Positions 6,046 to 9,992 of a DNA stretch of 29,124 nucleotides are shown here, one piece after another. How positions within the stretch are numbered: position 1 is the first letter of the stretch; every line of letters starts with the position of its first letter. The stretch spans positions 1 through 29,124 of the IMG/VR virus record IMGVR_UViG_3300030098_002844; one strand, 5' to 3'. This DNA is from a virus. The position numbers and the translations under genes were made by a program. Below the pieces are notes generated by a model. The model made no database searches. It was not told the DNA's origin and saw nothing but the letters and a program-made list of their open reading frames with translations.

Positions 6046-6561
6046 TTAAGGGTTATAAAATTTTCCATACAACTCTTTACCTTTTTTGTCTCTTGCTTTT
6101 ATTGCCATTTCTAATGTAGAAAATGAACCAACATAATGACTTTTATTTTGTTGATGTATGCAAACTACATATGGATTTAAAGTTTGATGATTTAGATAAG
6201 TAATTGATTTATGGCCAGAGGTATTATTAATACCTTTTAATCTGTTAGAGCTATTTTGTTGTATGGTTGCTTTTCTTAAATTTTTAAAAGTATTATCACT
6301 TTTGTTATGGTTAATGTGGTCAATTTCAAAAGGCCATGGGTCTTTCTTAGTTACTAATAACCAAGCAACTCTATGTGCTGCACATTCTTGTTTATTTATT
6401 GAAATATAAATGTAACCAGTTTTTTTTAAATAGCCTGCTTTTGAACCAGCTTTTTTATTTGCTTTATTAATTTTCCAATTAAATACACCAGTAAAGATGT
6501 TGTAAGTAAGAAGTTCATTTACAACATCAAATGGTGGCAGTTTTTTCGCCTTACAATACAT
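6046..6561 (-). CDS. HNH homing endonuclease with AP2 DNA-binding domain
   Basis: A 171-residue free-standing homing endonuclease. The N-terminal half has a small beta-region (F-N-W-K-I-N-K-A-N) and the HNH site: A-A-H-R-V-A-W-L-L, then F-E-I-D-H-I-N-H-N-K-S-D-N-T-F-K-N-L-R. The C-terminal part is an AP2-like domain (Y-V-V-C-I-H-Q-Q-N-K-S-H-Y-V-G-S-F-S-T, then A-I-K-A-R-D-K-K-G-K-E-L-Y-G). Such enzymes nick recognition sites in related phages and spread by repair. Its ATG directly follows the stop of the DUF2958 gene. It is last in its unit, just upstream of promoter A, a common insertion position for mobile HNH genes. Confidence 0.9.
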   Translation of the reverse strand: MYCKAKKLPPFDVVNELLTYNIFTGVFNWKINKANKKAGSKAGYLKKTGYIYISINKQECAAHRVAWLLVTKKDPWPFEIDHINHNKSDNTFKNLRKATIQQNSSNRLKGINNTSGHKSITYLNHQTLNPYVVCIHQQNKSHYVGSFSTLEMAIKARDKKGKELYGKFYNP

Positions 6562-7688: not shown

Positions 7689-8135
7689 ATGACAAGCTTC
7701 CATTTCAATGATGGTGGTAGAGCAGAAGCCGGCTACAAAGGTAGAACCGGTGACTGCGTTACAAGAGCGGTGGCAATAGCCGCTTCCCTCCCTTACCAAG
7801 AAGTTTATGACAGACTTGCTGAAGGTAACGCTACTCAAAGGATTACCAAAAGGTCAACAAAGAGTGATGGAAAGAAAACAGCAAGGCGTGGCATAAGTAC
7901 TAAGCGAAAATGGTTTAAGGATTACATGAAATCTTTAGGCTTTAGTTGGGTATCAACAATGGGTATAGGAACAGGTTGTAAGGTTCACTTAACAGCAGAA
8001 GAATTACCAAAAGGTACAATTATCTGTGTAGTAAGTAGGCACTATACAACAGTCATAGATGGAGTTATAAACGACACCTATGATTGTTCCAGAGGTGGCC
8101 AAAGATGCGTCTATGGTTACTGGAAAAAAGATTAA
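7689..8135 (+). CDS. Predicted papain-like-fold cysteine protein
   Basis: A 148-residue protein beginning M-T-S-F-H-F-N-D-G-G-R. The N-terminal G-D-C-V-T-R-A-V-A-I-A places a Cys at the start of a helix. A later S-R-H-Y-T-T-V-I-D-G-V-I-N-D-T-Y-D supplies His and Asn/Asp on strands. This Cys...His...Asp order is that of papain-like or C39-like peptidase folds, and related phage proteins share the R-x-G-D-C-x-x-R-A motif. The target is unknown: protease, transglutaminase-like and inactive variants are all possible. It is monocistronic, between promoter D and a hairpin terminator. Confidence 0.65.
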   Translation: MTSFHFNDGGRAEAGYKGRTGDCVTRAVAIAASLPYQEVYDRLAEGNATQRITKRSTKSDGKKTARRGISTKRKWFKDYMKSLGFSWVSTMGIGTGCKVHLTAEELPKGTIICVVSRHYTTVIDGVINDTYDCSRGGQRCVYGYWKKD

Positions 8136-8139
8136 ATAC

Positions 8140-8168
8140 AAGCTGCTCTTAATCGGGCAGCTTTCTTG
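8140..8168 (+). terminator. Probable rho-independent terminator
   Basis: AAGCTGC (8140-8146) pairs with GCAGCTT (8157-8163) around a 10-base loop, starting five bases after the stop of the 148-residue gene. The following U tract is short (TCTT), so termination may be partial. The box of promoter C starts immediately after. Confidence 0.6.
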
Positions 8169-8225
8169 CACCAATTAAAATACCGAACACTATATGGTAC
8201 ATCTTAGGGAAACTTTAATTATAAT
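8169..8225 (+). promoter_or_regulatory. Promoter C with upstream box (rightward)
   Basis: Box CACCA-N8-ACCGAACA at 8169-8189, then 30 bases to TATAAT at 8220-8225, then six bases and ATAGGG. TAGGGA falls 15 bases after the box, as in promoter A. It would drive the 112-residue gene at 8265. Confidence 0.75.
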
Positions 8226-8264
8226 ATAGTCATAGGGAGAGATCCCACAACCCCCAAACAAACA

Positions 8265-8603
8265 ATGACTAACACTTTCGATCTAACTGAAAAAGAACTT
8301 AAACTAGCTGAATGTGGTGATATTAAGTTTGAATACTTTTTTGAAGAAACTGGCTATGAAAATGTAGATGGCGACCCTGCTCTTACTTGTTTCACATTAA
8401 GAGATGCTTTAAAAACAACAGACTTTACAAAGCACCAGATAGCTGGTTTAATCAGTAGCTTAGAAGCCAAAGGCGTTTTATTTATAGAGTACAGAGATCA
8501 CGTTTATGAAGGTCCAGACCTTTACACTCTTACAGAAAGCTTTATCAACTTTATAGCTAGAAAAAACATTGCAGCCGGTACTGGCCGATATGTTTACGCC
8601 TAA
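8265..8603 (+). CDS. Hypothetical protein, possible winged-helix regulator (112 aa)
   Basis: An acidic N-terminus (F-D-L-T-E-K-E-L-K-L-A-E-C-G) is followed by T-C-F-T-L-R-D-A-L-K and by F-T-K-H-Q-I-A-G-L-I-S-S-L-E-A-K-G-V-L-F. The last stretch reads like the recognition helix and wing of a winged helix-turn-helix. A Tyr-rich C-terminal part follows. It is monocistronic, from promoter C to a strong terminator, as expected for a small regulator. The winged-helix reading is inference from pattern only. Confidence 0.6.
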   Translation: MTNTFDLTEKELKLAECGDIKFEYFFEETGYENVDGDPALTCFTLRDALKTTDFTKHQIAGLISSLEAKGVLFIEYRDHVYEGPDLYTLTESFINFIARKNIAAGTGRYVYA

Positions 8604-8612
8604 GAAACACAA

Positions 8613-8642
8613 AGGTTGCCCTTTACAGGGCAGCTTTTTTTT
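8613..8642 (+). terminator. Strong rho-independent terminator
   Basis: GTTGCCCT (8615-8622) pairs with AGGGCAGC (8627-8634) around loop TTAC, followed by eight Ts. It lies 10 bases after the stop of the 112-residue gene. Confidence 0.9.
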
Positions 8643-8661
8643 GTATAAAGTGTACAATAAA

Positions 8662-8759
8662 AATAGTCAGGGAGCCTGATGCCCATTGCAACACGAGGGC
8701 TGAAAGCTGTAATGGCAGGGCAGTCTCGGCGAGGTTGACTGATCTATCCCCTGATTATT
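8662..8759 (+). ncRNA. Candidate multibranched structured RNA
   Basis: The interval just after the terminator folds on paper into a closed junction. P1 pairs 8662-8672 with 8749-8759 (11 pairs, one G-U). P2 pairs 8680-8690 with 8708-8717 (ten pairs, one G-U, one bulged C). P3 pairs CAGTC 8721-8725 with GACTG 8737-8741. Both G-U pairs would be C-A mismatches on the other strand, so the plus-strand RNA is favoured. A weak -10 (TACAAT, 8653-8658) lies at the right distance. The 3' limb overlaps the end of the convergent rusA-like gene. No known RNA class recognised. Confidence 0.45.
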
Positions 8760-9183
8760 CTTCCAATGCTACGACTAATATATCTGCACCTACTTGTTCT
8801 CCTTCTTCACAATATCTCTTTTTCGCTGTAAGAATTGTTACTTGAGAATCATCTAAAAAAGTAATTCCGCTTAAAGCGTCTAAACTAGACCTTACAAGTT
8901 TATCCAAGTCATTTCTTCGAATCGTAACATTTCTAGGTGACCCTGTACGGAGACTGCCATTTGAGTAATAATGAGCCTTCGGACGTTTAAACCGAAAAGT
9001 GGCCTCTACATAACAAGCTTTAGTTATAGCTGGTTGCTTAATTTTTATAGCCTCTCTTTTAACCGCCTCTCGCCATGGTTTTACTCTTTTACTTACCTCA
9101 ATCATTCTTCCATTACCTATATACTTTTTACTGCCCTGCGGAGCAGCTTCAATGCCGTTTACAGAGAATTTAAAAGATGTCAT
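8755..9183 (-). CDS. rusA: RusA-like Holliday junction resolvase
   Basis: A 142-residue endonuclease of the RusA family, predicted to cut four-way junctions made by the phage recombination system or replication forks. It begins with the typical F-S-V-N-G strand and a P-Q-G-S-K-K loop. The catalytic region is present: R-R-N-D-L-D-K-L-V-R-S-S-L-D-A-L, then G-I-T-F-L-D-D-S-Q-V, supplying the conserved Asp residues and the Lys of D-L-D-K. The first ATG is only one base from the opposite-strand ATG of the initiator gene, so the two genes overlap head-to-head by 7 bp. Confidence 0.9.
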   Translation of the reverse strand: MTSFKFSVNGIEAAPQGSKKYIGNGRMIEVSKRVKPWREAVKREAIKIKQPAITKACYVEATFRFKRPKAHYYSNGSLRTGSPRNVTIRRNDLDKLVRSSLDALSGITFLDDSQVTILTAKKRYCEEGEQVGADILVVALEE

Positions 9184-9992
9184 TTAATCCACAGGGGTAT
9201 CAATTTACTGCTTTACCAACAAATCTTAGAGGTAAAATACAACCAAATCAACTAGCGGTACTTTGGGTAATACAGAGTTATGCAAATAAAAACGATCAAC
9301 AATGTTGGCCAGCTTTAAAGACTATCGCAGAAAATGCTTGTATTTCTAAAAGAACAGCACAGAAAGTTGTTAACCAACTTGTTTCTTTAGGATATTTAGA
9401 AAGAACACATCAAAAGGGTCGTAATGGGGAACAGGGTAGCAATTTATATAAAGTGACTGTTTGGCATTTAGCTAATGTACCAGAACCTAGTATTAATAGG
9501 CGTGGCAAATCCTGCACCCCTGCAGCAAATGCTATGCCCCCATGGCAGAATATGCCATGCCCCATAGCAGCAGATGCCACCAAACTAGATACAACTAAAC
9601 TAGATACAAAAGAACTAGATAAAAAATATAATAAAAAAGATTATTCTGATGACTTTCTTTTATTTTGGGAAACTTACCTTGCTATAAAAAAAAGAGCTAG
9701 TGGCCAAAATAAACCAAAGGCATGGGCAGAGTATCAGAGAATTTTGAAAAAAAAGACAGCACCATATCTACAAAACTGTTTAGAATTAGCAATTATTCAA
9801 CAAAAACAGACAGAGAAAAAAGGTGGGTTTGCTGTTTGTTTTCCTAATTGCTTTAGATGGTTAAGAGATGAAAGCTATGAAGGATATGTAAAAAATAAAA
9901 CAGAAGCCCTGTACAAACAAAGAAAGTCTGATACAACTAATAAAAAGCCATGGGAAAAAGATAAACCTAATGGCCAAGACGTACCCTTTTAA
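9177..9992 (+). CDS. Winged-helix replication initiator/organizer
   Basis: A 271-residue protein with the architecture of phage O/DnaD-type replication proteins. Residues about 20-95 form a winged helix (L-A-V-L-W-V-I-Q-S-Y-A, then C-W-P-A-L-K-T-I-A-E-N-A-C-I-S-K-R-T-A-Q-K-V-V-N-Q-L). A low-complexity linker with T-K-L-D-T repeats covers about 130-160. The C-terminal domain has F-W-E-T-Y-L-A-I-K-K-R and K-P-K-A-W-A-E-Y-Q-R-I-L. With no phage polymerase here, it probably recruits the host replisome. The linker DNA carries three 15-bp-spaced repeats and an AT-rich stretch, as in lambda O/ori. No alternative downstream start fits the domain. Confidence 0.75.
   Translation: MSFNPQGYQFTALPTNLRGKIQPNQLAVLWVIQSYANKNDQQCWPALKTIAENACISKRTAQKVVNQLVSLGYLERTHQKGRNGEQGSNLYKVTVWHLANVPEPSINRRGKSCTPAANAMPPWQNMPCPIAADATKLDTTKLDTKELDKKYNKKDYSDDFLLFWETYLAIKKRASGQNKPKAWAEYQRILKKKTAPYLQNCLELAIIQQKQTEKKGGFAVCFPNCFRWLRDESYEGYVKNKTEALYKQRKSDTTNKKPWEKDKPNGQDVPF
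9531..9660 (+). other. Candidate replication origin inside the initiator gene
   Basis: Three elements in a row. First, an inverted repeat: GCTATG (9531-9536) and CATGGCA (9541-9547) facing TGCCATG (9553-9559) and CATAGC (9563-9568). Second, three repeats of AAACTAGATACA type at 9582, 9597 and 9612, exactly 15 bp apart (third copy GAACTAGATAAA). Third, an A/T run from about 9620 to 9650 that could unwind. Iterons plus an AT-rich region inside the initiator gene is the lambda arrangement. The repeats also encode T-K-L-D-T repeats, so a protein-level cause is possible. Confidence 0.5.

What the first reader, a model, noticed from the sequence alone, without database searches (positions are those of the whole stretch)
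8662..8759. Candidate structured noncoding RNA between a terminator and rusA
A 98-base interval without a gene folds into a closed multibranch junction: an 11-pair closing helix, a 10-pair arm with one bulge, and a 5-pair arm. Wobble pairs in two helices are compatible only with the plus strand. It follows a strong terminator, has a weak own -10, and is antisense to the end of rusA. It matches no RNA family I know.
Basis: seen in the sequence. Interest (0 to 1): 0.7.

Follow-up and report, generated by a model that had tools for sequence, protein, structure and literature searches.

The report
Structured RNA shared by cyanophages and hosts
A 100-base stretch next to a phage recombination gene encodes a folded RNA of a family I could not find described, present in about a hundred marine cyanobacterial viruses and in some of the cyanobacteria themselves, usually directly after a gene's stop codon; its fold is well supported, its job is not yet known.

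Summary
Window 8662-8759 is one member of an RNA family with no Rfam match and no description in the papers searched. The 36-sequence structure-blind alignment keeps 99.2% of cells paired in five helices, with both-sided changes at 10 of 21 pairs. A phylogeny-aware test on 87 sequences supports the hairpin near the 3' end (P5; three pairs E<=0.015). G-U exceeds A-C 192 to 35, so the plus strand folds. About 100 viral contigs carry it, including Prochlorococcus phages P-HS2, MED4-184 and MED4-117; 14 of 151 picocyanobacterial genomes carry one to eight copies. In most phages it starts about 6 nt after a stop codon; in hosts it follows a stop codon and often precedes an intrinsic terminator. Orthologous host genes at 36-39% protein identity keep it (3 of 3). 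The window's clade differs: gene, terminator, conserved -10, RNA, so here it probably forms the 5' end of the rightward transcript. Best guess: a cis-acting mRNA element that blocks RNA decay; that mechanism is inferred, not shown.

The parts
8662..8759 (+). The structured RNA (conserved core about 8666-8755)
   Evidence: Model R1 88.7 bits in the window; homologues in about 100 viral contigs and in picocyanobacterial genomes
8666..8672 (+). P1 5' strand, pairs with 8749-8755; extended to 8662/8759 in the window
8749..8755 (+). P1 3' strand
8675..8677 (+). Possible P2 (CCY) with RGG at 8718-8720
   Evidence: paired in 85-86 of 87 sequences, UG/UA/CG at one pair, no both-sided change: compatible, not proven
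8681..8700 (+). P3 hairpin, stem 8681-8685/8696-8700, variable loop
   Evidence: GC/AU, CG/AU/UA and CG/UA/AU exchanges; best pair E=0.09 in the phylogeny-aware test
8706..8716 (+). P4, stem 8706-8708/8714-8716; in most relatives enlarged by an internal loop and a further hairpin
   Evidence: CG to UA at one pair in 7 of 36 sequences
8721..8741 (+). P5 hairpin, stem 8721-8725/8737-8741
   Evidence: three pairs E<=0.015 against a tree-simulated null on a structure-blind alignment
8653..8658 (+). -10-like hexamer TACAAT, 7 nt before P1
   Evidence: in 13 distinct spacers of the terminator-preceded relatives 9 have at least 5 of 6 matches at this spot, 2.6 expected (the sequences are related, so the P value is too small); no -35
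8611..8638 (+). Intrinsic terminator of the upstream gene
   Evidence: 12 pairs, 4-base loop, T run; conserved in place in relatives
8265..8603 (+). Upstream gene (112 aa, no family); differs between close relatives
8755..9183 (-). rusA-like resolvase gene, convergent, overlaps the RNA by 5 bases
   Evidence: PF05866 E=1.3e-10, phrog_140 E=8.9e-24
9177..9992 (+). First same-strand gene downstream (replication initiator-like), start of the rightward operon
   Evidence: phrog_270 E=1.3e-24; RNA upstream of TerS/TerL on the same strand in 60 of 62 contigs

Best explanation
SHOWN by sequence: plus-strand RNA fold with covarying helices P1, P3, P4 and P5; strongly conserved unpaired stretches; fixed orientation; a place directly after stop codons in most phages and in hosts, with a terminator next in many host copies; retention with orthologous host genes. 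In this phage's clade, sequence supports but does not prove that the RNA is cut off from the upstream gene by a terminator and starts at its own -10, so that it would be the 5' end of the rightward transcript. INFERRED: the compact fold acts as a barrier to RNases (5'-to-3' RNase J or RNase E entry, or 3'-to-5' exonucleases), stabilising the mRNA or mRNA end it is attached to; phages carry the host's element to protect their own transcripts.
For: Covariation on structure-blind alignments, none for the rival minimum-energy arms. Strand by G-U/A-C. Stop-to-P1 distance mostly 5-7 nt in phages and 6-26 nt in hosts. Host order gene-RNA-terminator: terminator found within 90 nt in 14 of 31 host copies, 0 of 79 phage copies. 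YbjN-like genes at 36-39% identity, 3 of 3 followed by the RNA; the third was looked for after the first two suggested it and was found, which argues for cis linkage. Upstream neighbours otherwise unrelated (RTX proteins, S8 peptidase-like, small signal-peptide-like proteins in hosts; hypotheticals in phages), as expected for a general mRNA element rather than a metabolite sensor. Conserved -10 upstream in the window clade.
Against: No transcript, stability or structure-probing data. The element sits at the 3' end of host mRNAs but probably at the 5' end of the transcript in the window clade, so one protective direction does not fit every context. The conserved unpaired nucleotides could equally bind a protein or a ligand. 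Most picocyanobacterial genomes searched (137 of 151) show no copy.
Confidence: 0.45

Rival explanations
1. A trans-acting small RNA: released from host 3' UTRs together with the terminator, and made from its own promoter or by processing in phages, where it would mimic or titrate the host RNA.
For: RNA plus terminator makes a unit of roughly 150 nt in many host copies; own -10 in the window clade; neighbours vary; phage and host sequences intermix in part of the tree.
Against: No terminator follows the RNA in any of 79 phage copies; host copies stay with orthologous genes, which a trans RNA does not need; conserved unpaired bases lie in junctions rather than in one exposed seed (inference).
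Confidence: 0.25
2. A ligand- or protein-binding regulatory element (riboswitch-like aptamer).
For: Complex fold with long invariant unpaired segments; a terminator follows in many host copies.
Against: Lies after genes of unrelated families, not before a common pathway; downstream genes vary in distance and strand; no Rfam riboswitch match.
Confidence: 0.12
3. An antitermination leader of the rightward (late) phage operon, like HK022 put RNA.
For: In 60 of 62 contigs it lies on the same strand upstream of TerS/TerL, 0.3-5.4 kb away.
Against: The 20 kb downstream in the window hold no strong plus-strand terminator and fewer terminator-like sites than shuffled sequence; one lineage (L135, L138) has the RNA on the strand opposite to TerS/TerL; in hosts it sits just before a terminator at the end of the gene.
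Confidence: 0.07
4. A DNA-level recombination site or gene-cassette boundary (integron attC-like), conserved as a single-strand fold.
For: In the window clade different genes lie directly left of the terminator-RNA block; several host genes share 5' flank and 3' RNA around unrelated coding sequences.
Against: attC folding uses the bottom strand, here the coding strand folds; the copies are diverged with compensatory changes rather than near-identical; no attC core sequences by eye; no integrase tested.
Confidence: 0.05
5. Chance structure without function.
For: Single-sequence z-score only -2.07.
Against: All column pairs with E<2 in the phylogeny-aware test fall in the predicted helices; 99.2% of cells paired, 0 of 500 shuffles reach it.
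Confidence: 0.01

Closest known systems
Orphan structured RNA motifs of marine bacteria and cyanophages (manA, wcaG, PhotoRC-II; Weinberg et al. 2010, PMC2864571)
   Same: Found in cyanophages and marine picocyanobacteria by covariation; function unknown or inferred
   Different: Those with Rfam entries are in the Rfam copy searched and do not match here; manA and wcaG lie in 5' UTRs of metabolic genes, this one after stop codons
Xrn1-resistant RNAs of flavivirus 3' UTRs (PMC5760640)
   Same: Proposed way of working: a compact junction fold as a barrier to an exonuclease in a 3' UTR
   Different: No sequence or Rfam match; different hosts and nucleases; resistance not tested
Yfr103 of marine picocyanobacteria (PMC5069720)
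   Same: Multi-copy structured RNA of marine Synechococcus and Prochlorococcus
   Different: Reported as 290-328 nt ncRNAs; here about 105 nt attached to genes.
HK022 put RNA
   Same: cis RNA near the start of a phage operon
   Different: Not matched; no downstream terminators to overcome in the window; also present at the ends of host genes

Membership tests
Any Rfam 15 family | Covariance-model match at the gathering score | tested here: not met
   No match for the window, 8 phage loci (only a group I intron elsewhere) or 20 host loci (tRNAs and one glutamine-II away from the RNA)
Conserved structured RNA (general kind) | Helices supported by covariation beyond phylogeny | tested here: met
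Conserved structured RNA (general kind) | A transcript is made | not testable with these tools
   No RNA data; -10 and strand evidence only
tRNA / tmRNA | ARAGORN detection | tested here: not met
   No tRNA or tmRNA in the window
Autonomous small RNA gene | Own promoter and own terminator | tested here: inconclusive
   Own -10 only in the window clade; terminator after 14 of 31 host copies, 0 of 79 phage copies
Riboswitch | Located before genes of one pathway | tested here: not met
   Lies after unrelated genes
Riboswitch | Ligand-dependent folding | not testable with these tools
   -
put-type antiterminator | Makes RNA polymerase read through downstream terminators | not testable with these tools
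   Circumstantial evidence against
Exonuclease-resistant RNA | Stops an exoribonuclease at a defined position | not testable with these tools
   -
Integron attC | Bottom strand folds; integrase present | tested here: inconclusive
   Coding strand folds; integrase not searched
Yfr103 | Sequence identity to Yfr103 | not tested
   Sequence only in supplements, not readable here

The most novel reading that the evidence does not exclude
A structured mRNA element traded between marine cyanobacteria and their viruses that blocks RNA decay without protein help: a bacterial counterpart of viral exonuclease-resistant RNAs, used by the phage to protect its replication and late transcripts while host RNA is degraded.
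Probability: 0.18. Interest if true: 0.9.

Novelty: new variant of a known kind. Interest (0 to 1): 0.7.

Why it matters
Its place directly behind stop codons, in both phage and host, is unusual for a conserved bacterial RNA structure, and the sharing points to exchange of a post-transcriptional control element. Cultured carriers exist (P-HS2, MED4-184, MED4-117 on Prochlorococcus; Prochlorococcus MIT 0701 as host), so the question can be tested directly.

Tried and rejected
Hammerhead-like reading of CUGAUG..GAAA and box C/D kink-turn reading: the required core or closing helix is absent (by eye, from memory, not a formal test). A first count of structure pairs with mistyped columns is void and replaced. 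Alternative P2 registers: CCUG/CAGG is broken in some relatives (L053, L062), CCY/RGG is not; an extension of P5 by GG/UC past a bulged A competes with it and neither covaries on both sides. Stop-codon read-through or frameshifting as the reason for the 6-nt spacing: spacings of 5, 6, 7 and -1 nt and all three stop codons argue against a conserved frame. An antitermination role: no terminators downstream. Cultured Synechococcus phages KBS-S-2A and S-H1, the nearest by terminase apart from the MED4-184 group, lack it. Blast of a consensus against phage and plasmid records: nothing. Four pattern hits (L131, L146, L156, L161) and the Oscillospiraceae contig L188 were chance. Literature searches for an earlier description found none.

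Full report
The 98 bases at 8662-8759 lie between a strong terminator (8611-8638) and the end of a rusA-like gene on the other strand (8755-9183; PF05866, phrog_140). As a single sequence they fold at -35.2 kcal/mol, z -2.07, with 9 of 200 shuffles as good. That alone is weak. No Rfam family reaches its gathering score, and permissive matches are to the terminator or by chance.

HOMOLOGUES. A search with RusA brought 17 close viral relatives with the downstream region. In all but one (L014, where the contig ends too early) the element is present beside rusA. Already by eye the helices co-vary, for example CAGGG/CCCTG to GAGGG/CCCTC and AGTC/GACT to GGAC/GTCC. A weak BLAST hit led to three Prochlorococcus phages, P-HS2, MED4-184 and MED4-117, with a diverged copy beside a rusA-like gene. 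Model R1, built from 36 of them, finds the RNA in 76 of 80 sources in one search and in a further two dozen viral loci in another. Four pattern hits without a model match are chance.

STRUCTURE. On the MAFFT alignment A1, which knows nothing of structure, RNAalifold finds P1, P3, P4 and P5. The named structure P1-P5 keeps 99.2% of cells paired (shuffled 87.9%), with both-sided changes at 10 of 21 pairs and a covariation score of 0.400 against 0.183; sliding the partners destroys it. For relatedness I simulated substitutions along a FastTree tree, in the manner of R-scape, on a structure-blind alignment of 87 sequences. All eight column pairs with E<2 are pairs of P1, P3 or P5; three P5 pairs have E<=0.015; no pair outside the helices appears (similar on the model-fitted alignment). 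P1 and P3 are individually below strict significance (best E 0.33 and 0.09) but are supported by several exchanged pairs each. P2 (CCY/RGG) pairs in nearly all sequences without both-sided change and remains open. G-U pairs outnumber A-C pairs 192 to 35 (P5: 49 to 4), so the plus strand is the folded one.

HOSTS. A strict pattern in GTDB genomes hit Prochlorococcus MIT 0701, a contig binned as Blastopirellula that reads like marine Synechococcus, and one chance contig. Searching MIT 0701 gave four to five copies. In 151 genomes of its family 14 have one to eight copies. In 291 genomes of the class, R2 hits only genomes of 1.7-2.9 Mb and none of the larger cyanobacteria listed.

PLACE. In phages, P1 begins mostly 5-7 nt after a same-strand stop codon; in the P-HS2 group the stop codon touches P1; in the window's clade a terminator lies between. 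In hosts the distance is mostly 6-26 nt, and an intrinsic terminator follows within 90 nt in 14 of 31 copies, in none of 79 phage copies. The upstream host genes are unrelated to each other: several RTX proteins (PF00353), an S8 peptidase-like protein, small proteins with signal-peptide-like starts, a YbjN-like protein. A prospective check: two YbjN-like orthologues (36% identical) both carry the RNA; a third, in a genome not flagged by the first RNA search, was sought by protein (39% identity) and also has the RNA just behind it (E 2e-9 in that small search). So the RNA stays with a gene over long times.

WINDOW CLADE. Several related sublineages share the order gene, terminator, spacer, RNA. 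The spacers carry a -10-like hexamer 6-9 nt before P1 in 9 of 13 distinct cases, 2.6 expected, with perfect TATAAT in two lineages. No -35 is evident and the generic scan finds nothing above chance. So a transcript starting at P1 is supported but unproven. No terminator follows, and transcription would run antisense through rusA into the replication and packaging genes. In 60 of 62 contigs with a recognisable terminase the RNA lies upstream of TerS/TerL on the same strand; one lineage (L135, L138) has the opposite arrangement.

MECHANISM. What is shown ends with a conserved RNA fold in mRNA context. The neighbours argue against a pathway-specific riboswitch; the lack of downstream terminators argues against antitermination; the folded strand argues against an attC-like DNA site; the lack of a terminator in phages and the gene linkage in hosts argue mildly against a free small RNA. 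A general mRNA element that stops RNA decay fits the most observations, but it has not been tested and the two ends of the mRNA are not both explained by one nuclease direction. I give it 0.45, with a trans-acting RNA at 0.25.

NOVELTY. No Rfam family, no description found in the held literature. Yfr103, a multi-copy picocyanobacterial RNA of 290-328 nt (PMC5069720), could not be compared. The kind of thing (an orphan structured RNA) is known; the family and its stop-codon position in both phage and host are new as far as I could check.

Noticed in passing
window 8235-8246: Perfect hairpin GGGAGAGATCCC upstream of gene 8265. Similar small hairpins with a GAGA-type loop follow promoter-like sequences before many genes in related cyanophage contigs (L062, L078, L114, L115) and before RNA-bearing host genes (L212, L221), possibly a second shared mRNA element.
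   Followed up: partly
L200, L211, L212, L213, L220, L228, L229 (host genomes G006, G063, G091): An 85-nt promoter/5'UTR block is 78-94% identical in front of unrelated coding sequences that also carry the RNA behind them: fixed flanks with exchanged cargo genes.
   Followed up: partly
window 8100-8660 and L001-L018: The gene directly left of the terminator-RNA block differs between close phage relatives, a hot spot of gene exchange.
   Followed up: partly
L005, L007, L009-L013, L015, L016 upstream of the RNA: A second conserved noncoding stretch (GGTTGACTAGGTACTATTGTTATCATTAAAGCG...ACCGCCTTACCGCC) with its own terminator, not seen upstream of the RNA in the window; perhaps another small RNA.
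   Followed up: no
L220, L210, L211: CRP-like palindromes (TGTGATCAACATCACA) upstream of RTX-type host genes that carry the RNA.
   Followed up: no
L192 and L193: REP-associated (Y1) transposase-like reading frames within about 1 kb of two RNA copies in Prochlorococcus MIT 0701.
   Followed up: no
L189: A contig binned as Blastopirellula reads like marine Synechococcus (photolyase, FabI, RTX protein), probably mis-binned.
   Followed up: no
L093 962-1204 minus strand: Group I intron in a related phage contig (Rfam 67 bits).
   Followed up: no
window 6046-6561 minus strand: HNH homing-endonuclease-like reading frame among early genes (read by eye).
   Followed up: no
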